A stretch of 20,963 bases of DNA, from positions 1-20,963 of the IMG/VR virus record IMGVR_UViG_3300007541_000296. One strand, given 5' to 3'. The stretch is from a virus. A program made the translations under genes and the position numbers. Shown piece by piece: positions 3,088-20,963 of the stretch. Below the pieces are notes generated by a model. That model worked only from the letters and a program-made list of their open reading frames with translations. It did no database searches and was not told where the DNA came from. The first letter of the stretch is position 1. Each line of letters opens with the position of its first letter.

Positions 3088-3681
3088 ATGAGTACATTGA
3101 TCCCAATGGTGGTTGAAAAATCACAAAATGGTGAAAGAGCATATGACATTTTTAGTCGTTTGCATAAAGAACGAATCATTTTCTTAAATGGTGCTGTTCA
3201 TGATGAGGTGTCACACACCATTAACGCACAATTGATTTTTCTAGAATCACAAGGCGGTGACAAACCCATTCATTTTTATATTAACTCCCCAGGTGGCGTG
3301 GTTACTGCTGGTATGGCTATCTATGATACTATGCAATATATTAAACCTCCTATTCACACATACGTGATGGGGCAAGCCTGTTCAATGGGATCACTACTTG
3401 CACAAGCAGGTGATCCAGGACATCGCTATATGCTTAAACACGCAAGGCATATGATTCATCAACCTAGCGGTGGATTTAGCGGACAAGCAACCGATATACA
3501 AATTCATGCGAATGAAATTCAACGTGTGAAAAAAGAGTTAACAGACATCTACGTTAAACATAATTCAAAAGGCAAGACATATGATGAACTTGCTAAGGAT
3601 ATGGAACGTGATTACTTTATGAATGCACAAGAAGCACTCGATTACGGACTTATTGACGAAGTTATCGAAAAAAGGAAATAA
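3088..3681 (+). CDS. clpP: ATP-dependent Clp protease proteolytic subunit-like serine protease
   Basis: 197 aa, the usual length of bacterial ClpP. The catalytic triad is intact: Ser99 in GQACSMGS, His124 in [10 protein letters not shown] and Asp175 in [23 protein letters not shown] (65-70) is the conserved strand/oxyanion segment, so the protein should be an active peptidase. Bacterial ClpP forms a 14-mer that degrades proteins fed by ClpA/X/C; no ATPase partner is encoded here, so it would use host chaperones or work alone. The start at 3088 has AGGAG at 3072-3076. The gene lies 3 nt after the previous one and overlaps the next by one base (TAATG). Phage ClpP homologues are known in marine T4-like phages; they may remodel host proteolysis or process virion proteins. 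The context does not decide between these. Confidence 0.93.
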
Positions 3682-6650: not shown

Positions 6651-7100
6651 ATGGGTAAACATTATAGTACAAAACATTACGGACACAACATTGGGTTGAG
6701 TGCCGTATTTAGACAGCCTAACGCAGATCATTCACACTGTCATCTGCTTCACGGTTATAGTCTAGCATTTACATTTACATTTGGTTGTGATAATTTAGAT
6801 AATAAAAACTGGGCAGTAGACTTTGGTGGACTAAAGCCACTCAAGGCTTGGTTGGAAGATAAATTCGATCACAAACTTTGTTTAGATAACGCAGATCCAC
6901 ACATAGCCAAGTTCCAAGAACTTGAGAATCTTGGACTTGCAGAAATTAGATATTTCGATGGTGTTGGTGCGGAGAAGTTTGCGGAACACGCATTTCACTT
7001 TGCGGATCAATTAATACGAAAGGCAACGGACAATCGTTGTTATTGTGTCAAGGTAGAGTGTGCCGAACACGGTGCTAACTCAGCAATCTACGAAGGATAA
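6651..7100 (+). CDS. 6-pyruvoyl tetrahydropterin synthase / QueD family protein
   Basis: 149 aa, the size of the PTPS/QueD fold. Seen: HSHCHLLHGYS (27-37) with Cys30 at the catalytic cysteine position and His27/His34 as zinc ligand candidates; WAVDFGGLK (54-62), the family's 'vDF..lK' strand; FDHK with Asp73-His74, the conserved catalytic Asp/His pair; and a C-terminal ECAEHGANSAIY with Glu136/Glu139 for pterin binding. The family converts 7,8-dihydroneopterin triphosphate to 6-pyruvoyl-tetrahydropterin, or (QueD) to 6-carboxytetrahydropterin for queuosine and 7-deazaguanine synthesis. The usual third zinc His of HGH is Tyr36 here; marine phage members often seem to have HGY, so this may be a subfamily trait. 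No queC, queE or queF lies nearby. Start: ATG with AAGGAGG; own promoter. Confidence 0.85.
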   Translation: MGKHYSTKHYGHNIGLSAVFRQPNADHSHCHLLHGYSLAFTFTFGCDNLDNKNWAVDFGGLKPLKAWLEDKFDHKLCLDNADPHIAKFQELENLGLAEIRYFDGVGAEKFAEHAFHFADQLIRKATDNRCYCVKVECAEHGANSAIYEG

Positions 7101-9572: not shown

Positions 9573-10147
9573 TGAACCTAGATACATACATTGAACAATA
9601 TCCAAATGCATTTACAAAAGAATATTGTGATAATGTTATTAATCGTTTCGAACTCATGGCTAAAAACAATGGTGTAGGTGGCGGCAAGAGCATAAGAAAA
9701 AATGCTGATACTAGAACAGTATATGACTGGGCACCACACTACGAAATGTTTTATCATGATCCAAAACTGGTTGAAGAATTCTACTCAACCATGCACAAAT
9801 ACTATTTGCAATACATGGACAAGTACACAGTACTAAAAGATAGTGTAGCAAAACACACACCCAAAGGAATGAGCATTCAACGAACAGATCCTAAAGAAGG
9901 ATATCACATATGGCACGTTGAATCAGAGAGTTTAAAAAGTTCCAATAGGGTAGTTGTGTATATGCTTTACCTTAACACAGTTATGAATGGCGGAGAAACA
10001 GAATTCCTTTATCAAGGAGTAAAAACTAATCCTGTTACAGGCAAGTTGGTTTTCTTTCCGGCGACATGGCAACATCCACACAGAGGAAATCCAATTTATG
10101 AAGGTAACAAATACATTATTACAGGCTGGTATACTTGGGATGAATAA
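9572..10147 (+). CDS. 2OG-Fe(II) oxygenase, prolyl-4-hydroxylase-like (191 aa)
   Basis: Carries the double-stranded beta-helix signature of P4H-like dioxygenases: GYHIWHVESES (110-120) with His115 and Glu117 as an HxE pair where HxD is usual, then VVVYMLYLNTVMNGGETEF (127-145), and the distal WQHPHRGNP (166-174) with His170 as third iron ligand and Lys180 (GNKYIITGW) as likely 2-oxoglutarate anchor. The substrate is unknown; prolyl or other side-chain hydroxylation is the family default. GGAGAG precedes the ATG, which overlaps the upstream stop. A TTAAATA sequence (9546-9552) inside the upstream gene could add late transcription. It overlaps uvdE by 8 nt. Two different oxygenases in tandem suggest sequential or parallel modification of the same target. 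Confidence 0.87.
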   Translation: MNLDTYIEQYPNAFTKEYCDNVINRFELMAKNNGVGGGKSIRKNADTRTVYDWAPHYEMFYHDPKLVEEFYSTMHKYYLQYMDKYTVLKDSVAKHTPKGMSIQRTDPKEGYHIWHVESESLKSSNRVVVYMLYLNTVMNGGETEFLYQGVKTNPVTGKLVFFPATWQHPHRGNPIYEGNKYIITGWYTWDE

Positions 10148-11213
10148 ACGCATAGGCTTTGCTTGTAAGTATCTACACCCAGATCAAACACAGAAAAAGA
10201 AACTGCTAGAAGAAATTCAACGACCATTGAATACTCGCAGTACCACGGTTCAATGGCTTAATAGGCAAACTAAAGAAGTTGCAGAAGAACGTCTATGGGA
10301 TATTATGGTACACAACATCAAGTCGTTTGAGAACTTGATTAGATACGTAGGAGGTTTACCAAATGAATTACGAATGGTTCGATTGGGCAGTGATGTCCTT
10401 CCTGTATACACTGAGCCTACTTGGTGCTATTACTGGAAACTACCTGATGTGGTCAAGTATTGCGAACAGCATTTCGCAAGGGTCGGCCAAGTTGCAAGAG
10501 AACTTGATGTACGGTTGTCTATGCATCCTGGTCAGTTTACTGTGTTGGCATCTGACAACCCTGATATAGTAAATAGAAGCATAGAGGAGTTTGAATATCA
10601 TGTCGACGTCATTCGGTGGATGGGTTATGGCAAAAATTGGCAGGACTTCAAGTGTAATGTCCACATCGCCGGTAGACAAGGTCCAGCCGGTATCATCAAC
10701 GTCCTTCCAAGACTGTCTCCAGAAGCACGAAACACACTTACTATTGAAAACGACGAAATGTCGTGGGGCATCGACGCAAGCCTCGAACTTGCCGACCACG
10801 TCGCACTCGTGCTTGACATACACCATCACTGGGTCAATAGTGGAGAATACATTTTACCAACCGACGATCGATTTGCTCGCCTAGTAGATAGTTGGCGTGG
10901 TGTACGTCCAGTTATACATTATTCAGTATCACGTGAAGATGTTCTAGTAGATTTTAATACTGCTATTTTACCCGACAAAGAACTATTATTAGAACAGGGT
11001 TATAAGAAAGCAAAACTAAGAGCACATTCAGACTTTATGTGGAATAATGCTGTAAACGACTGGGCATTAACATTCTGGGATTATGCTGATATTATGGTAG
11101 AATCTAAGATGAAAAATTTAGCCACCATTAATTTGCATAAATATTATCATGAAAATTACGGAATTAGAAAACAAGAATTGTCCGAGAACACACGCCTCGC
11201 TGTGTCAGTGTAA
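10140..11213 (+). CDS. uvdE: UV damage endonuclease UvdE (UVDE)
   Basis: 357 aa with start MNKRIGFACKYLHPDQ; the longer in-frame start at 10098 would only add residues inside the upstream gene. Family motifs of the UVDE TIM barrel are all visible: RLSMHPGQFTVL (125-136), CNVHIAGRQGPAG (172-184), LTIENDE (200-206), LVLDIHHH (223-230), PVIHYSVSRE (257-266) and RAHSDFMW (294-301). These His, Glu and Asp residues bind the metal cluster. The enzyme nicks DNA 5' of UV photoproducts and abasic sites, starting ATP-independent repair; it is unrelated to T4 DenV. The segment 10600-10870 is richer in G/C and C-ending codons than its surroundings. The gene overlaps the oxygenase (8 nt) and the SOD gene (65 nt). 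Confidence 0.92.
   Translation: MNKRIGFACKYLHPDQTQKKKLLEEIQRPLNTRSTTVQWLNRQTKEVAEERLWDIMVHNIKSFENLIRYVGGLPNELRMVRLGSDVLPVYTEPTWCYYWKLPDVVKYCEQHFARVGQVARELDVRLSMHPGQFTVLASDNPDIVNRSIEEFEYHVDVIRWMGYGKNWQDFKCNVHIAGRQGPAGIINVLPRLSPEARNTLTIENDEMSWGIDASLELADHVALVLDIHHHWVNSGEYILPTDDRFARLVDSWRGVRPVIHYSVSREDVLVDFNTAILPDKELLLEQGYKKAKLRAHSDFMWNNAVNDWALTFWDYADIMVESKMKNLATINLHKYYHENYGIRKQELSENTRLAVSV
11137..11143 (+). promoter_or_regulatory. T4-type late promoter box ATAAATA inside uvdE
   Basis: ATAAATA followed by five bases (TTATC) and the SOD ATG at 11149. The 16-mer ATAAATATTATCATGA here is identical to the one in front of the Fe-S gene at 12453, which makes chance unlikely and decides the SOD start. 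Confidence 0.7.
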
Positions 11214-11706
11214 AAGCATACACAAAATATCAGAATCTCAGGAAACCGTGTTTGCGGCTGTTTCTGAACTGATTCATTCGGATAAAGTTCAAGGAAAAAT
11301 TCTTTTCATGCAAAGACCCGGAGAGCCAACACTTATTAAAGGACGCATAACTGGTTTAGAACCAGGTAAGCACGGTTTTCATATACACGAATTCGGTGAT
11401 CTAACAGATGGTTGCGATTCTGCTGGCGGACATTATAATCCAGATAACACAGACCATGGTGATTTGGAAAATGGACACGTAGGAGACTTAGGAAATATCG
11501 TAGCGGGAACAGACGGCGTAGCCGATTTCACCATTGTTGCAAAACGTGTAGATTTAACCGGCGACCGATCAATAGTTGGACGCTCAATCGTTATTCATTC
11601 TGGAGAAGATGATCTAGGAAAAGGTGGCGATGAAGAATCACTTAAAACCGGGAATAGCGGGGATAGAGTTGCTTGTGGGGTAATTATACTTAGAGCAACG
11701 AATTAA
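11149..11706 (+). CDS. sodC: Cu/Zn superoxide dismutase
   Basis: Every key residue is present: copper ligands His78 and His80 (GFHIHEFGD), bridging His95 (GGHYNP), zinc ligands His103, His110 and Asp113 (HVGDLGN), copper ligand His150 (IVIHSGEDDLG), disulphide Cys89-Cys176, and the substrate-guiding Arg173 (SGDRVACG). It converts superoxide to peroxide and oxygen. Bacterial SodC is normally periplasmic, but no signal peptide is seen. Instead there is a 33-residue N-terminal extension with Cys11, Cys19 and Cys21 (CQC). I keep the ATG at 11149 because a late promoter box sits five bases before it, although this overlaps uvdE by 65 nt; a GTG at 11248 with AGGA is the alternative. Late expression would fit protection of the dying host or packaging in virions. 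Confidence 0.93.
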   Translation: MKITELENKNCPRTHASLCQCKSIHKISESQETVFAAVSELIHSDKVQGKILFMQRPGEPTLIKGRITGLEPGKHGFHIHEFGDLTDGCDSAGGHYNPDNTDHGDLENGHVGDLGNIVAGTDGVADFTIVAKRVDLTGDRSIVGRSIVIHSGEDDLGKGGDEESLKTGNSGDRVACGVIILRATN

Positions 11707-12785: not shown

Positions 12786-15700
12786 ATGGCACGTAAAACA
12801 ATTAATATAGGTACAACGGGCAACGATGCTACAGGTGATAGCATACGTGAAGGCTTTAAGAAGGTAAATGAAAACTTTACTGAAGTCTATGCGGCGATTG
12901 GACTAGGTGGTGGTTTAACATTTGAATCATTAGACAATACTCCTGGATCGTTAACTCCTAACAAAATTTACACATCTAACTCAGCAGGTACTGCTATTGT
13001 TGAAAGAACACTACAAGGTAACGGTATTGGTGTTGACTTTGCTAGTGATCCTACAAAAGTTATTTTATCAAACACCGGTACTGAAGTTAGATTAGATACA
13101 ACACCACAACTAGGTAATGACCTAGATGCACAAGGATTTTTAATTGAGAATCTTGGTAACCCACAAAAAGCACAGGACGCTGTTACAAAAATTTATGCTG
13201 ATAACACATTCGTAAATGCGGCAGGTGATACAGCCACAGGTGTTATTAGATTACAAAACAGTGGTAGTCCAAGAATTCCAACCCTTACTGACGAAGCAGT
13301 AAACAAACAATACGCAGATACAAAAGTTGGTAAGACCGGCGATGCAATGACCGGTCCACTTCTATTAAGTGAACATCCACAGTTTGGTGATGATCCTTTA
13401 CAAGCGGCTACCAAAGGTTATGTTGATGCAAACAGTTTTGTTAGTCAAAACAACATCTTTGTTTCTCCACAAGGTAGATCAGAAAAAGAAATGTTGTCGA
13501 GTGGTATCGCTCAAGAGCAAGTTGGTAGAAGCCGTTCAAACGCATTTAAATCTGTTAGAGAAGCGTGTTTTTATTCAGAAAGAATTATCAAAGGCGATCT
13601 TAAACTTAAACAACAAGGATTGCTTCCTTCAACGCATACAGTATATTGGAGAGAACCTGCTAAGAAACCAGGACCATATACAATTAACCAAGCGGCTGAT
13701 GGTACAGAAGATTTAACAAACGTAATAGCAAATTCATTACTTGTTAAAAACAGAACATTTATTCAGCAAGAAACACTTGCTTGGATTGAAAGAGAAATTG
13801 CTGATGGTGATAACACAGATGCGTTTGGTAACACATTTACCTTTGACAGAGATTTTTGTTACAGAGATGTTGGATTAATTATTGACGCTGTCTCTTTTGA
13901 CTTAACCTACGTTGGAAATTCTAAAACAGTTGATGCGGCATTAAGTTACTGGAACGGTGCTACATCAAGAGTTGCTGGACAACAAACACAAACAATTACA
14001 GCAATAAATTTTGCTAGAGATTTAATTAACAATTACATACTAACACAAACAGCATATCCAAGTGCTGGTGCTGGTGCTAATCCAAATGCTATTGCACTAT
14101 TAAGAGCAAACAAAGATTTTGTAGTTGACGAAGTTATACAATGGATCAATGATCAGATTGCGGCAGGCACAGGTATTTGGAATGGTTTTACATATGATCA
14201 AAACAAGTGTGCTAGAGATTTAGGAATTATTATTGACGGTATCATTTTTGATATTCAATGGGGCGGTAATACACAAACAAGATACAATTCAACATTGTAT
14301 TGGGATGGTGTAACATCATATGTTAATGGTCAAGTTCAACAAACAGCAGATTCTTTAGCATATGCTAAACAACTTGTAACACAATTTATTTTAACAAACA
14401 CAGCGTTTGCTTCTTTACAATCAGGAGTTAATGCTTCAGATCAAGTTATTCTAGGATCAAATGGTGAGTCCGTGGCAATTACAGCGGTCGGTAACTTGAT
14501 GGACGATCTACAAGATGTTGTATCAAACGGGTTAGGTAGTCTACCTCCATTAGTTGGTACTTCACAAAATACCAGCGGTGTTACACAGTTTAGAGATTTA
14601 TCATACATTGTTGAACCAGGTGCTTCAACAACAATTACTAATTTAATGAAAATTATCACCGATGTAATTGCGGGTGGTATCGGAGCGGCTCCTGCTAAGA
14701 CAGGTGGTCAAGGTAGAGAACAAAACTTACCAGATCCTGAAATTTCAATCTTTGTTGAATCCGGTGTGTATGAAGAATTGTTCCCAATCGTTATTCCAGA
14801 GAACGTATCTTTGGTAGGTGACGAACAGCGTAGAACAATCATTCAACCAATACTTGGTGTAAGACCTCCATCTAGAGCATTAAATTTAAAATTTGAAAGA
14901 GGAATGGTTAAACGCTATGATGGTACTGCTACACCACTGGCGGCACGTTTCCGTAATCACTACGACTCACAATATTCACAGGCTGATACATCAACAGGTA
15001 TTAACCTAGCAGGTAACTCAAGCGTAAGATTAAAAAATCTTGTTTACTTCCCACTACCTGGTATGTACTTCGAATGGCAAGGAACAAGATACTATATTAA
15101 AAACTTTTCATACGACCCTGCCGGCGTAGGAGATTTTACAAGAGCGGATATTGAATTATTCACAGATCCAAACCTTGCTAATCCAACAACTCTACAAAAC
15201 GATATTCCGGTTAATACTGTTATTGAGTTGAAAAAACTTAACCAGCATATGGATATGTTCTTAATGAACAACTCCACTATTTTAAGAAATGCAACCTACA
15301 GAAGGGCACAAGGATTTAATATGGTACTTGACCCTGAAGGTCAAATTTTAACCAAATCTCCTTATGTTCAGGTTGCTTCGGTATTTGCTGGTCCTGGTGG
15401 CGGCGGTCAATATGTTGACGGTAATGCAGGTGTGCAATATGGTACAGTTGTGGATAATCCTGCGACAGGAACATCAATTACCCTGTCAGGTTTAACTAGA
15501 GCAATTCAAATTCCAACAACATTCCTTTATCAGGGTGCAGGCGGAACAGAAAAGAAAACATACAGAATTATCGGTTCCACATCACCAGTTGATGATGGAC
15601 TAGGAAATTCACCTGTAACATTTAAACAAACACTAACACTAGCCAACGACGCTAAAATTGAAGTTGACGCTAAAACATTGCCGGCTGGTACGATTCCGCA

Positions 15701-18700
15701 GGCGGAACAAATTAGAATTGAAACCGCTGGTAACAAATCCATGTGTTCAAATGACTACACACAGGTTAACTCCGACGGTTATGGATTGGTTGCTGACAAC
15801 GCAGGACTTGTTGAAACAGTTTCTGTATTCACATACTACTGTGACATTGCTTATTGGGCAAAAAATGGTGGACAGATTAGATCATTAAACGGATCAAACG
15901 CATACGGTCGTATAGCATTACAGGCAGAAGGTTCTAACCCGAACGAAAACGTACAAGGTGGTAAAGTTTACTACGAACACCTTAACTCTTATGTTACTGG
16001 ATCTCCTGAAGTAGATGGAACACAGGAAATGACTGTGCATAATCCAGGCGGAGGCGATGCATTAACAGGACAAACATCAATCGAAGTTAGAAACTATGAC
16101 TATCTACCATTTGAAAATTCTAAATTTAGATTAACAAAGTATTCAACAAACAGCGATGGAACATTCTACGAAATTGATGAAGTTGAATACATTAACGAAG
16201 TTGTTACCAGCATTACACTAGCATCAACGGCAGTTGTTACTACACAAAACGCACACTATTATAGAGATGGTTCTGTTATTAAATTAGCAGGATTCGATGG
16301 CAATGGTATGGTCAATACCAACGGTGTTTACTACTGTAAGGTATTAAGTTCAAATACATTCGAAGTTTATACCGATGCAAACTTAACGGTAGGCTTAGAT
16401 ACAACAACAAAAGGCAATCCTTCTTACAGTGGTAGTGGAGGTACAGCAGTTGGTGGTGGTAGAGCAAAATTAAATCTAGGACAAGCATTAGCAACAGGTG
16501 TTGGCAATGATATTCCAGATGGATCAAGAATTGTTGTTACAATAGGTAAAAAAATAAAAATTAAAGACCTAGTAGATACTCCTAGAGTATTGCCAAGTTC
16601 TGCTTTACAATATGCACTTGGTGATCAACAAGTATTTAGAATTTTAGGTGTTGATAGAAGAACAGCAAACGAACCGAGTGGTGATGTTAATTATCAATAC
16701 ATGACACTCGATCTTACTGTTCCTACAACAAGAACAGCAGACGAAACTGTTAAGGTTACAACACAAATTTCAACACTAAGAGCAACAGGCCATGACTTAC
16801 TAAACATTGGTTGGGGTAACTTTATAAACTCAAACTATCCAAACAACGTGTTTGGTGCTCCTGCTGGTAGACCAGACTTTTCATCAGACCAAGCGGCTGA
16901 AGCAGTTGAAGTTGGTGCAGGTAGAGTTTTCTATGCAACAACCGATCAAGATGGTAACTTTAGAGTTGGTAGATTCTTCCGTGTTAACCAAGGTGACGGT
17001 AGCGTAGAACTTAATGCAAATATTTCATTAACAAACGTTGACGGTTTAGGATTTACAAAAGGTACGGTTGTTGACGAGTTTTCGACAGATGATAAAATGT
17101 CTGGTAGATCAGACGATGCTGTTCCTACAGAAGCAACTATTGTTACATACATTAATTCAACAGTTATTGGTAGACACGAAGATGGTACATCAGTAACAGA
17201 CTTTACATCAAATGGTTCACAAAAATCAACAACCTCTGGAGGATTATTATCAAGAGATGGTTGGGATTCTGTTGAAAAACCTTGGAACAAAATGCAAGGT
17301 ACTTTCAATATGGGTTCAAATATTATTAGTAACCTTTCAAATGGTACAAGTTTAACAGATGCTGTTAACAAGAACTATACCGATAACGTGTTTAGAGGTG
17401 ACATTACAGATTCTATTAGAACAGATGTAAAAGCATTTACAATGTTAAATGATAGCACACTTGATACTGGTGCTATCGATATGAATGGTAATAGAATTAA
17501 ATCTTTGCGTGATCCAGTAGATGGTTCGGACGCAGTAACTAAAAAATATACTGATGCTAAAAATAGACTAGGTGGACTAAGCGGAGTAACCATCACAGGT
17601 GGTCCTAGCAATACCGATCTATTAATGTTCACAGGTGTTAATACGGTTGACGGTGATGGTAACCAAGTAGAAGGTGCTGTTAACGTAGGACTAGATACTA
17701 CCGTTGATACAACACCAGCAAGTCCAACATTTGGTGAACCAACAGGCACAGGATCAGACATTAGAATTGTAAGAAATGGAAATACAATTAGTGTAAACTA
17801 TGCAACAGGTTCTATTAGAAATGCTGATGTAAGTGGCACGGCGGCTATCGCACAAAGCAAGTTGGCTATGAATGCCGCTACTACAAGAGCAAATGCAACC
17901 GGCATTACACAAGCGAATTTAGGTTTAGCAAGTTTCCATAATACCCAATTTAATATTACAAATGGTTGGGTTGAATTAGCAACTCCAACTTCATTATCAC
18001 CAACATTAGGTACTCCTATTAGCAAATTAAGTTTCATTACTGGTAATAGTATCTTAGGAAACTCAGGTGTTAGCACAGGTGTTGTAACAGCACTATCTGG
18101 AGCAAGTGTAAGAACAATTATTGACTTTACCAATCAGGTCGAAGCGACAATTACTGAAAACTTATTACAGAGCAAAAATGCTATTACAAACACACTAGGT
18201 GGTACATTATCGGGATCATTAATTGTTGATGGTTCGCAGGGTGGTATTATTAAACCAAATGCGGCCAGCGGTGCTGATATTGGTTCATCGGCATTACCGT
18301 TTAATGACACATATTCTGATACGTTTGTTACAAACTACATTAAAGAATTAAACACAGCAAACAATTTAACAATTAAAGGTGCAGATGATTCACCAGCATT
18401 GGTTATCAGCGACACACCGGTTGGTAGTGCACCTGCACTAACAGCGACAAATAATCTAGCAACAACAGATACTTATGAAAACTCAGTTTTCTATGGTAAA
18501 GCAAGACGTTTAGAAACAGAAAGAACAATTTACATAACAGGTAGTGCTAGTGGTAATGCTACTTTCGATGGATCAAAAGATATTACAATTGACATAGTTC
18601 CTGCAATCGCAGTTGGTAACCCAACTGACGGAACATACATGAGACGTAATGGTATTACTGATGATTCATACGCACTAGGAACATTAGGTGTTAAATCAAT

Positions 18701-19250
18701 AGTTCCAAGTGATGGTACAACAGGAAGTTCTGTTCCTTACACAAATGTAAAAGCAGACAATCTATATGATATAGGTGAAGGTGACAGCGATCAGTTTGAT
18801 GGTTCTGGTAATAGATTTAGAACAGTATATGCTTACACATTCAATGGTACAGCAACCAAGGCTCAATATGCTGACTTGGCAGAGAAATATCGTGCAGACG
18901 AATCTTATGAGCCAGGCACTGTGCTAATGTTTGGTGGTGATAAAGAAGTTACACTTGCTCAAGGTAAAGCAACAACTAAAGTAGCAGGTATTGTTTCAAC
19001 TGATCCAGCATACTTAATGAATGCAGGATTAAAAGATGAAAATGTTGTAGATGTAGCATTACAGGGTAGAGTACCTTGTAAGGTTGTAGGAAAGATTTCA
19101 AAAGGAGATATGTTGGTTGTAAGTAACACGGCGGGCGTGGCTACTGCGGCTGGAACATCACCTAAACTAGGAACCATTCTTGGTAAATCGCTAATGGATT
19201 ATGATTCAGATGAAGTTGGCGTTATCGAAGTAGTGGTTGGTAGACAGTAA
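12786..19250 (+). CDS. Giant tail-fibre / virion structural protein (2154 aa)
   Basis: ATG 12786 with GGAG at 12773-12776. The N-terminal signature INIGTTGNDATGDSIREGFKK (from residue 6) is shared with the next gene and is probably the attachment domain. Residues about 110-220 hold fibre repeats (DAVTKIYAD, KTGDAMTGPLLL, AATKGYVD). Two homologous modules of about 120 aa follow (318-424 and 438-543; CYRDVGLIIDAVSFD against CARDLGIIIDGIIFD). Around 649-690 lies a pectin-lyase-like opening (FVESGVYEELFPIVIPENVS), suggesting a beta-helix. Residues about 1538-1605 are again fibre repeats. The C-terminus (about 2027-2154, QYADLAEKYRADESYEPGT to the end) is a conserved tip domain of marine phage structural proteins, perhaps analogous to intramolecular chaperone tips. 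There is no transmembrane helix. Role: host recognition or long fibre; its exact position on the virion is unknown. Confidence 0.85.
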   Translation: MARKTINIGTTGNDATGDSIREGFKKVNENFTEVYAAIGLGGGLTFESLDNTPGSLTPNKIYTSNSAGTAIVERTLQGNGIGVDFASDPTKVILSNTGTEVRLDTTPQLGNDLDAQGFLIENLGNPQKAQDAVTKIYADNTFVNAAGDTATGVIRLQNSGSPRIPTLTDEAVNKQYADTKVGKTGDAMTGPLLLSEHPQFGDDPLQAATKGYVDANSFVSQNNIFVSPQGRSEKEMLSSGIAQEQVGRSRSNAFKSVREACFYSERIIKGDLKLKQQGLLPSTHTVYWREPAKKPGPYTINQAADGTEDLTNVIANSLLVKNRTFIQQETLAWIEREIADGDNTDAFGNTFTFDRDFCYRDVGLIIDAVSFDLTYVGNSKTVDAALSYWNGATSRVAGQQTQTITAINFARDLINNYILTQTAYPSAGAGANPNAIALLRANKDFVVDEVIQWINDQIAAGTGIWNGFTYDQNKCARDLGIIIDGIIFDIQWGGNTQTRYNSTLYWDGVTSYVNGQVQQTADSLAYAKQLVTQFILTNTAFASLQSGVNASDQVILGSNGESVAITAVGNLMDDLQDVVSNGLGSLPPLVGTSQNTSGVTQFRDLSYIVEPGASTTITNLMKIITDVIAGGIGAAPAKTGGQGREQNLPDPEISIFVESGVYEELFPIVIPENVSLVGDEQRRTIIQPILGVRPPSRALNLKFERGMVKRYDGTATPLAARFRNHYDSQYSQADTSTGINLAGNSSVRLKNLVYFPLPGMYFEWQGTRYYIKNFSYDPAGVGDFTRADIELFTDPNLANPTTLQNDIPVNTVIELKKLNQHMDMFLMNNSTILRNATYRRAQGFNMVLDPEGQILTKSPYVQVASVFAGPGGGGQYVDGNAGVQYGTVVDNPATGTSITLSGLTRAIQIPTTFLYQGAGGTEKKTYRIIGSTSPVDDGLGNSPVTFKQTLTLANDAKIEVDAKTLPAGTIPQAEQIRIETAGNKSMCSNDYTQVNSDGYGLVADNAGLVETVSVFTYYCDIAYWAKNGGQIRSLNGSNAYGRIALQAEGSNPNENVQGGKVYYEHLNSYVTGSPEVDGTQEMTVHNPGGGDALTGQTSIEVRNYDYLPFENSKFRLTKYSTNSDGTFYEIDEVEYINEVVTSITLASTAVVTTQNAHYYRDGSVIKLAGFDGNGMVNTNGVYYCKVLSSNTFEVYTDANLTVGLDTTTKGNPSYSGSGGTAVGGGRAKLNLGQALATGVGNDIPDGSRIVVTIGKKIKIKDLVDTPRVLPSSALQYALGDQQVFRILGVDRRTANEPSGDVNYQYMTLDLTVPTTRTADETVKVTTQISTLRATGHDLLNIGWGNFINSNYPNNVFGAPAGRPDFSSDQAAEAVEVGAGRVFYATTDQDGNFRVGRFFRVNQGDGSVELNANISLTNVDGLGFTKGTVVDEFSTDDKMSGRSDDAVPTEATIVTYINSTVIGRHEDGTSVTDFTSNGSQKSTTSGGLLSRDGWDSVEKPWNKMQGTFNMGSNIISNLSNGTSLTDAVNKNYTDNVFRGDITDSIRTDVKAFTMLNDSTLDTGAIDMNGNRIKSLRDPVDGSDAVTKKYTDAKNRLGGLSGVTITGGPSNTDLLMFTGVNTVDGDGNQVEGAVNVGLDTTVDTTPASPTFGEPTGTGSDIRIVRNGNTISVNYATGSIRNADVSGTAAIAQSKLAMNAATTRANATGITQANLGLASFHNTQFNITNGWVELATPTSLSPTLGTPISKLSFITGNSILGNSGVSTGVVTALSGASVRTIIDFTNQVEATITENLLQSKNAITNTLGGTLSGSLIVDGSQGGIIKPNAASGADIGSSALPFNDTYSDTFVTNYIKELNTANNLTIKGADDSPALVISDTPVGSAPALTATNNLATTDTYENSVFYGKARRLETERTIYITGSASGNATFDGSKDITIDIVPAIAVGNPTDGTYMRRNGITDDSYALGTLGVKSIVPSDGTTGSSVPYTNVKADNLYDIGEGDSDQFDGSGNRFRTVYAYTFNGTATKAQYADLAEKYRADESYEPGTVLMFGGDKEVTLAQGKATTKVAGIVSTDPAYLMNAGLKDENVVDVALQGRVPCKVVGKISKGDMLVVSNTAGVATAAGTSPKLGTILGKSLMDYDSDEVGVIEVVVGRQ
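13737..14414 (+). repeat. Tandem protein module duplication within the giant fibre gene
   Basis: Codons for residues 318-424 (13737-14057) and 438-543 (14097-14414) encode diverged copies offset by about 117-120 residues. Matching anchors are W333/W453, RDVG(360-363)/RDLG(477-480), FD(371-372)/FD(488-489) and YW(388-389)/YW(505-506). The copies have diverged too far to be an obvious DNA repeat. Confidence 0.7.
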
Positions 19251-19271: not shown

Positions 19272-20687
19272 ATGGCAGACGTAATTAATATAGGACAAAA
19301 TGTAAACGACGGAACAGGTGATGACTTACGTACCGCGTTTACAAAGGTCAATCAAAAGTTTGCAGAACTAGAAGCATTAGGTGGTGAAACAAACTCAGGT
19401 GTAAACGTTGGTAGCACTGCACCAGATGCTATCGGTGTATTTGCAGGAAAAACAGGAACAGATTTAGAATTTAGAAAAATCAAATCTGCTAACCCTGCAT
19501 ACTTAACTGTTGAAGTTGGTCCTAGTGGTGATATAGTTCTTAATAACTTGAACGTTCAAACTCCCGCTTTTAGAAATGTTCAAGCACAAAGCGGTCCAAC
19601 AATTAACGCAACAGCACCAAGTTATACACTTTCATTCCTTGGTGGTAATAACATTACAACAGAATCATCCGGTGGAAATATTTTAATCAACGGACAATTT
19701 GAACTTAGCCAAGATCCAAGTCCATCACTAGGTGGTAATTTGGATATGACCAATGCGGATATTATTGGTCCAGGTAATATTACTAACATTACAAAATTAA
19801 CAGTAATTGGAACAGACATTGTCAATCCAAGTACTATATCGAATTTAGATATTACAAATCAACTTAGGGTTTCAGCGGCAACAACATTTTCAAACAATGT
19901 AACAGTATCTGGGTCCAGCAACATAACACTAGGTACAGGTTCTTTAATTGGTAACGTTACAGGTGATTTAACAGGTAACATAATAGGTGGATTAGGAAAT
20001 GATTTAAATCTAAATCAATATACCATTACAGGACAAGGTTCAATTAACGTAAGAACACCTAACTCAGGTAATCCTGTAGAAACAGAAGGCGGCTTCTATA
20101 TGCAAACCGATGATTCGAATCCATCTGTTGCATTTAGATTGATCACTGCTAATAATTCAGAATCAGATGCATTCGTTGGTATCGAATCACATTCTTTATC
20201 AACAATTGATCCAGGCTTTGGTACTGGTATAGAATTTTCAGTAGGATCTGGATCTCTTAACAGTTTAAAACAACTTGGTTCTATTACAGGTGTTTACGAC
20301 GATGCGTCAAACTATTCGATTGAAATTAAAGCATATGGTCCGGGTTTATTTTATGATGCACCAGCGATAGCAAAATTTAAAGGTAACAACGAAATTATTT
20401 TAGGCCGTGGTGATCCTGCAATTAAAATTAAAGACAACAGAATTGAAAGTTACGGAGTATCAAACAGCAACTTAATATTCGATGCTGACGGAGCAGGTTA
20501 TATTGACTTTTATGGAATTTATCAATTTCCAAGAAGCATTGGACAAGCGGGTCAGGTATTAAAAGTTCCTACTAGTGGTACAGTGCTAGAATGGGGAACA
20601 GGTGGTGGCGGTGCTACAACAACTGCTATTACTGCTATTACTCTTACAAACCCATTAAGAATAACAACAGGTACAGCACACGGATGA
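19272..20687 (+). CDS. Second tail-fibre protein, interrupted by in-frame TGA (471 aa to the TGA)
   Basis: The N-terminus MADVINIGQNVNDGTGDDLR matches the opening of the giant fibre (INIG..xND.TGD..R..F.KVN..F.E), so both probably attach to the same structure. The middle has fibre-stem style strands (SLGGNLDMTNADIIG, GNVTGDLTGNIIGG) and no enzymatic motif. At 20685-20687 a TGA follows TAHG; sequence in the same frame stays open to the window end and looks like fibre (see next feature). If the TGA is a stop, the product is truncated in the middle of a recognisable module. If it is read as Trp, the protein continues beyond 563 codons. A late box overlaps the preceding stop codon. Confidence 0.8.
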   Translation: MADVINIGQNVNDGTGDDLRTAFTKVNQKFAELEALGGETNSGVNVGSTAPDAIGVFAGKTGTDLEFRKIKSANPAYLTVEVGPSGDIVLNNLNVQTPAFRNVQAQSGPTINATAPSYTLSFLGGNNITTESSGGNILINGQFELSQDPSPSLGGNLDMTNADIIGPGNITNITKLTVIGTDIVNPSTISNLDITNQLRVSAATTFSNNVTVSGSSNITLGTGSLIGNVTGDLTGNIIGGLGNDLNLNQYTITGQGSINVRTPNSGNPVETEGGFYMQTDDSNPSVAFRLITANNSESDAFVGIESHSLSTIDPGFGTGIEFSVGSGSLNSLKQLGSITGVYDDASNYSIEIKAYGPGLFYDAPAIAKFKGNNEIILGRGDPAIKIKDNRIESYGVSNSNLIFDADGAGYIDFYGIYQFPRSIGQAGQVLKVPTSGTVLEWGTGGGGATTTAITAITLTNPLRITTGTAHG

Positions 20688-20963
20688 ACTGATAATCAAA
20701 ACGTTACAACAACCGACATTGTTGGTACAACTGAACTTAACGGTAACAGTTACTATGTTGATGTTATTAACTCAACAACCGTAGATCTTTACACAGACGA
20801 AGCATTACCAACTGCCGTTGATGGCACAACAGGATTTACTGCATATACATCAGGCGGTTACATAACTGGTGCGGCGGGTGCAGGTGGTGGATCATTTGTT
20901 GCATTATCAGATACACCAAACTCTTATTTGGCGGCGGCTGGCGATGCTAACAAACTTGTTCAG
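20685..20963 (+). other. Same-frame open continuation of the second fibre gene after TGA (runs off window)
   Basis: After the TGA, 92 codons stay open to the last base. They encode VTTTDIVGTTELNGNSYYV and later SFVALSDTPNSYLAAAG, the usual '.LsDTP.SY..a' motif of marine phage fibres, so this is real coding sequence. The module spanning the TGA aligns with one in the giant fibre near 16203-16330 (AHYYRDGS against AHG-stop-TDNQ), which puts the stop at a Tyr position. No ATG lies in frame nearby for restart; only a late TTG exists. Readthrough as Trp, a recent TGG-to-TGA mutation, or a base-calling error all fit. Confidence 0.7.

What the first reader, a model, noticed from the sequence alone, without database searches (positions are those of the whole stretch)
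20685..20687. In-frame TGA inside a fibre module, at an aromatic position, in a phage that carries its own tRNA-Trp
The frame from 19272 meets TGA at 20685 but remains open for another 92 codons with unmistakable fibre sequence. Aligning by eye with the paralogous module in the giant fibre (ITLASTAVVTTQNAHYYRDG, codons near 16203-16262) places the TGA opposite the second Tyr (16260-16262). An aromatic site is what one would expect if TGA stood for Trp. Natural readthrough would give short and long fibres with different tips, a way to vary host range. The simpler explanation, a TGG-to-TGA change or sequencing error, remains possible.
Basis: partly seen in the sequence, partly recalled or inferred. 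Interest (0 to 1): 0.8.

Follow-up and report, generated by a model that had tools for sequence, protein, structure and literature searches.

The report
Private stop codon in phage fibre
A phage tail-fibre gene carries one stop codon (TGA) where its relatives have a leucine codon; this is most likely a one-off mutation or sequencing error rather than a new way of reading the code, although the phage's own tryptophan tRNA has features known to help ribosomes read through TGA.

Summary
The 19272 frame meets TGA at 20685-20687, inside an E1_FCCH-type module, and stays open for 92 codons to the contig end, with clear homology on both sides. The only two full-length relatives in the searched IMG/VR collection have uninterrupted fibres of 950 and 971 aa, and both have leucine at this site: TTA in L003 and CTA in L212. 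Across 66 distinct viral modules with a free codon at this position, the residues are Tyr 26, Leu 21, Phe 15, Met 2, Ala 1, Ile 1; none is Trp or a stop. No in-frame stop occurs in about 195 kb of homologous fibre sequence from 168 loci. The window has 98 TGG codons and no other interrupted gene was seen. Best reading: a private one-base departure from a Leu codon (consensus error near the contig end, or a recent nonsense allele), not a reassigned Trp codon or conserved readthrough site. One point keeps readthrough alive: the phage's tRNA-Trp(CCA) has an A27·G43 mismatch (4-bp anticodon stem), U11-A24 and A59, matching an E. coli UGA-reading triple mutant. However, about 10% of viral tRNA-Trp genes sampled combine a 27-43 mismatch with A24, and all seven terminase matches in mismatched-stem phages are uninterrupted. 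Only reads can decide.

The parts
19272..20687 (+). tail-fibre reading frame up to the TGA (471 aa); the first part of a fibre that is 950 aa in L003 and 971 aa in L212
   Evidence: T4 gp9/10 N-terminal-like match at residues 4-89 (below Pfam's cut-off)
20685..20687 (+). in-frame TGA; homologous codon is TTA (Leu) in L003 and CTA (Leu) in L212
20688..20963 (+). open continuation, 92 codons to the contig end, homologous to the uninterrupted relatives; the only in-frame start codon is a TTG at 20928
20625..20867 (+). E1_FCCH-type module containing the TGA, about residues 452-532 of the read-through frame; absent from the otherwise similar fibre of L041
16197..16406 (+). paralogous FCCH-type module in the giant fibre, with Tyr (TAT, 16260-16262) at the corresponding site
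12786..19250 (+). giant fibre gene (2154 aa), uninterrupted, directly upstream; same gene order in L003, L212 and L041
1653..1727 (+). tRNA-Trp(CCA) with A27·G43 mismatch (4-bp anticodon stem), U11-A24 and A59

Best explanation
The gene encodes a long (about 950 aa) fibre, and the TGA is a private single-base departure from a leucine codon (TTA in the closest relative) in the fibre's optional FCCH module. It is either a consensus or sequencing error 276 bases from the end of a metagenomic contig, or a recent nonsense allele that would cut the fibre at half length. It is not a reassigned Trp codon or a conserved readthrough signal. Shown: the position, the homology on both sides, Leu in both full-length relatives, and no stop in any related module found. 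Inferred: the direction of the change and that it is recent. Not decidable here: error versus real nonsense allele.
For: L003 reads GGA TTA ACA GAT where the window reads GGA TGA ACT GAT; L212 has CTA; both fibres are uninterrupted, 950 and 971 aa. 66 distinct modules found with a free codon at the site: no stop, no Trp, TTA in 5. A scan of 2.9 million viral contigs for TGA in a stricter module context gave 37 hits, none in an FCCH frame. No in-frame stop in about 195 kb of homologous fibre sequence, with the window as positive control. Only one interrupting TGA against 98 TGG codons, and TGA also closes two ordinary small genes. Downstream sequence shows no relaxed selection on the window's lineage, as expected if the change is very recent or an error. 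No stable structure downstream: z = 0.05 and -1.28.
Against: No reads are available, so neither error nor a real allele can be shown. Consensus stops were not seen elsewhere in these fibre genes, so an error or fixed nonsense here is uncommon. The phage carries a tRNA-Trp with readthrough-promoting features, a coincidence of about 1 in 10.
Confidence: 0.76

Rival explanations
1. The TGA is real and is partly read through as Trp by the phage's own tRNA-Trp(CCA), whose 4-bp anticodon stem (A27·G43), A24 and A59 relax decoding. A nonsense change at a hydrophobic site is thereby tolerated and some full-length fibre is made.
For: ARAGORN draws the 27-43 position as unpaired and U11-A24 as paired; the T loop is TTCAAAT, so A59. 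C27A (A27·G43) raises UGA readthrough about 2.5-fold in E. coli when overexpressed, and the C27A/G24A/G59A triple mutant reads UGA in vitro (PMC13092985). The site takes Tyr, Leu or Phe, and Trp occurs in one distant module. The downstream frame is conserved.
Against: In a viral sample, 20 of 118 tRNA-Trp genes have a mismatched 27-43 pair, 78 of 118 have A24, and 12 of 118 have both, so the tRNA is not exceptional. Of 20 phage records with a mismatched stem, all 7 with a detectable terminase match have it uninterrupted. No other in-frame TGA was seen in the window among 6138 codons. No relative shares the TGA.
Confidence: 0.17
2. Programmed readthrough: the TGA is kept to make short (471 aa) and long fibres with different tips, varying host range.
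For: The stop lies in a separable module and the frame is open beyond it.
Against: Both full-length relatives have a sense codon there; no stop in any related module found; no downstream structure beyond chance; the stop falls inside the module rather than between domains, so the short form would end in a broken module.
Confidence: 0.03
3. The phage reassigns TGA to Trp throughout (genetic code 4).
For: TGA is used sparingly as a stop (3 of 21 called genes including this one), and one gene ends in TGA with a TAG two codons later.
Against: 98 TGG codons against one in-frame TGA; the tRNA anticodon is CCA, and no UCA tRNA is in the window; two small genes appear to end at TGA.
Confidence: 0.01
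4. Split gene: a separate downstream protein starts after the TGA.
For: The downstream frame is open.
Against: The only in-frame start codon in the 92 codons is a TTG at 20928, beyond the module; relatives have one continuous gene.
Confidence: 0.02

Closest known systems
E1_FCCH-type modules (PF16190) in phage tail fibres
   Same: The interrupted region matches PF16190 over residues 466-532 when the TGA is read as Trp; same HG-x-(T/S)D ... ELNG layout as 66 other distinct viral modules.
   Different: A stop at position x. The match scores 26.9 bits, just under Pfam's cut-off of 29.5.
Phages with reassigned stop codons (table 15 or table 4, e.g. some Crassvirales)
   Same: An in-frame stop in a late structural gene.
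   Different: One interrupting TGA instead of many, no UCA suppressor tRNA seen, relatives have Leu. In the published survey only 11 of 73 predicted table-4 phages carried a Sup-TCA tRNA (PMC11210395), so a missing suppressor alone does not exclude recoding.
4-bp anticodon-stem tRNA-Trp(CCA), as in Blastocrithidia and Zinderia (PMC13092985)
   Same: CCA anticodon, 7-nt loop, top anticodon-stem pair unpaired (A27·G43, the tested C27A:G43 combination).
   Different: Also carries A24, so it falls outside that paper's 'Blastocrithidia-like' class; encoded by a phage; no readthrough shown.
Hirsh UGA suppressor (E. coli tRNA-Trp G24A)
   Same: U11-A24 pair in the D stem.
   Different: U11-A24 is the commonest state in viral tRNA-Trp (78 of 118), so it is not evidence of suppression by itself.

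Membership tests
Stop-codon-reassigned phage (TGA = Trp, table 4) | Many conserved in-frame TGA codons across genes | tested here: not met
   One in-frame TGA against 98 TGG in 6138 codons
Stop-codon-reassigned phage (TGA = Trp, table 4) | Homologues have Trp where this phage has TGA | tested here: not met
   L003 TTA, L212 CTA; no Trp in 66 modules
Stop-codon-reassigned phage (TGA = Trp, table 4) | Suppressor tRNA with UCA anticodon | tested here: inconclusive
   Only tRNA-Trp(CCA) in the window; the rest of the genome is not held
Conserved programmed stop-codon readthrough | The stop is conserved in related genes with a conserved open extension | tested here: not met
   No stop in either full-length relative or in 66 modules
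Conserved programmed stop-codon readthrough | Stimulatory RNA structure downstream | tested here: not met
   z = 0.05 for 151 nt around the site, -1.28 for 61 nt downstream; not every readthrough site needs one
Conserved programmed stop-codon readthrough | Extended protein is made | not testable with these tools
   Needs proteomics or a reporter
4-bp anticodon-stem tRNA-Trp(CCA) | Top pair (27-43) of the anticodon stem unpaired, 7-nt loop, CCA anticodon | tested here: met
   ARAGORN structure
4-bp anticodon-stem tRNA-Trp(CCA) | 'Blastocrithidia-like' subclass: lacks A9C and G24A changes | tested here: not met
   Position 24 is A
4-bp anticodon-stem tRNA-Trp(CCA) | Reads UGA in vivo | not testable with these tools
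   Needs a reporter assay
E1_FCCH-type fibre module | Profile match across the stop | tested here: met
   PF16190 E = 5.2e-06 over residues 466-532, 26.9 bits against a cut-off of 29.5

The most novel reading that the evidence does not exclude
[quoted passage not shown] This would be a phage counterpart of the Blastocrithidia mechanism and could help explain predicted table-4 phages that lack a Sup-TCA tRNA.
Probability: 0.14. Interest if true: 0.7.

Novelty: not a real feature. Interest (0 to 1): 0.22.

Why it matters
As it stands the TGA is most likely an error or a private mutation and matters little, beyond marking the deposited fibre as truncated by one base change. If the TGA is real and read by the phage's tRNA, it would be a phage case of UGA decoding by stem loosening rather than by an anticodon change. 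That idea can be tested directly across phages, since most predicted table-4 phages in one survey carried no matching suppressor tRNA (PMC11210395).

Tried and rejected
Genome-wide code 4 was rejected on codon use. A TGG-to-TGA origin was rejected because both homologues have Leu codons. A split gene was rejected for lack of a nearby start. A downstream stimulatory structure was not found. Searches that gave nothing: the whole window against annotated phages; the fibre and the module by tblastn against phages; the 422-aa gene next to the tRNA in viral contigs, so conservation of the tRNA locus could not be followed; the fibre in genome contigs, with only one N-terminal match of 47 residues in Methylobacterium. 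I asked whether phages with a mismatched stem use TGA stops less: 25.8% against 28.3%, not significant (Fisher p = 0.56; p = 0.07 for GC below 45%). FCCH modules in phages with the same tRNA type: none found. tRNA search in related contigs: none in seven short ones and 36 in one 167-kb contig.

Full report
What was checked. The window is a 20,963-base linear virus record of IMG/VR. The frame from 19272 has 471 codons, then TGA at 20685-20687, then 92 sense codons to the contig end. The continuation is genuine coding sequence. Read with TGA as Trp, residues 466-532 match the Pfam E1_FCCH profile across the stop (E = 5.2e-06, 26.9 bits, just below Pfam's cut-off). Homologous fibres align through the stop without a break. 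The quoted paralogous module in the giant fibre is at 16212-16271, and its second Tyr codon, 16260-16262, is opposite the TGA.

Relatives. Two full-length homologues were found in viral contigs. L003 has a 950-aa fibre, 63% identical, with the same giant fibre upstream. L212 has a 971-aa fibre, 49% identical over the aligned part. Both are uninterrupted, and both have Leu at the site: TTA and CTA. A third group (L041-L043, 38% identical) was found; the one read in full, L041, lacks the module altogether: its 909-aa fibre runs from LEWGAGGGG straight into FVGLSDTP. So the TGA lies in an optional module of a fibre that is about 900-970 aa in relatives, and a true stop would cut it to half length. 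The window and L003 differ by one base in this codon (TTA against TGA), so a single substitution explains the stop. A TGG origin is not supported.

How unusual a stop is. I scanned viral contigs for the module with a free codon at the site and collected 66 distinct modules: Tyr 26, Leu 21, Phe 15, Met 2, Ala 1, Ile 1, no Trp, no stop. A scan for TGA in a stricter module context gave 37 matches, none in an FCCH frame. The same scan with TGG gave 12 matches, one of them a real FCCH-like module, L045. In about 195 kb of homologous fibre sequence from 168 partly redundant loci there was no in-frame stop, while the same method does flag the window. The stop is thus private to this contig in what could be searched.

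Selection. Against L003, downstream dN/dS is about 0.18 (dN 0.20, dS 1.14) and upstream segments range from about 0.15 to 0.42. The window is no further from the outgroup L212 downstream (dN 0.32) than L003 is (0.36). The downstream half is therefore not decaying. This fits a very recent change, an error, or readthrough, and does not separate them.

Code use. The window holds 98 TGG codons in 6138 codons, one interrupting TGA, and two small genes that appear to end in TGA; most genes end in TAA. A general reassignment of TGA is excluded in practice. RNA folding around the site is no better than shuffled sequence (z = 0.05; -1.28 for the 61 nt downstream). The only in-frame start after the stop is a TTG at 20928, so a split gene is unlikely.

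The tRNA. The tRNA-Trp at 1653-1727 has anticodon CCA. In ARAGORN's structure its anticodon stem has four pairs: position 27 is A and 43 is G, unpaired; the D stem has U11-A24; the T loop is TTCAAAT, giving A59. This matters because a 4-bp anticodon stem made by the C27A change raised UGA readthrough about 2.5-fold in E. coli when overexpressed, and in vitro the C27A/G24A/G59A triple mutant of E. coli tRNA-Trp reads UGA (PMC13092985). G24A is the Hirsh suppressor (PMC11805395). The window's tRNA has all three states.

How special the tRNA is. In 118 viral tRNA-Trp(CCA) genes taken by one pattern scan, 20 (17%) have a mismatched 27-43 pair, 78 (66%) have A24, 12 (10%) have both, and one has A27·G43 with A24. 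In bacteria the paper reports 4-bp stems in 8.9% of tRNA-Trp(CCA) genes, most of those unpinned at the top also carrying A9C and/or G24A, and 2677 standard-code genomes having only the 4-bp form. Having such a tRNA does not imply reading TGA as sense: in 20 phage records with a mismatched stem, all seven terminase matches found were free of stops, and TGA stop use did not differ significantly between phages with mismatched and paired stems. The coincidence of tRNA and TGA in one contig is worth roughly a factor of ten at most.

Verdict. The most likely account is a private one-base departure from a Leu codon, either a consensus error 276 bases from the contig end or a recent nonsense allele. 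Readthrough by the phage's own tRNA-Trp, tolerating such a change, is the serious rival (about 0.17). A programmed two-length fibre is unlikely (about 0.03). Whether it is an error or a real allele cannot be settled without reads.

Noticed in passing
[quoted passage not shown] coli UGA-reading triple mutant. In a sample of 118 viral tRNA-Trp genes only one other has A27·G43 with A24 (L313).
   Followed up: partly
20625-20867 and L041:5989-8700: The FCCH-type module is an optional insert between the LEWG-GGGG linker and FVGLSDTP: present in the window, L003 and L212, absent in L041.
   Followed up: yes
12800-12884 and 19283-19367: The two neighbouring fibre genes share their N-terminal region (71% DNA identity over 85 bases, T4 gp9/10-like), suggesting duplication of a common attachment part.
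   Followed up: no
391 and 7283: The two small genes that end in TGA have a second stop two or three codons later in the same frame (TAG; TAA). Two cases only, may be chance.
   Followed up: no
L045:6757-6785: An FCCH-like module with Trp (TGG) at the site that is TGA in the window, showing that Trp can occur there.
   Followed up: partly
6651-7100 and 10098-11213: Host-like metabolic or repair genes in the phage: a 6-pyruvoyl tetrahydropterin synthase and a UvdE-type UV endonuclease (Pfam). By reading only, a ClpP-like protease at 3088-3681 and a Cu/Zn superoxide dismutase-like protein at 11149-11706.
   Followed up: no
L156 (record G007, 167,540 bases): A large phage related through the giant fibre carries 36 tRNA matches, whereas the short related contigs carry none.
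   Followed up: no
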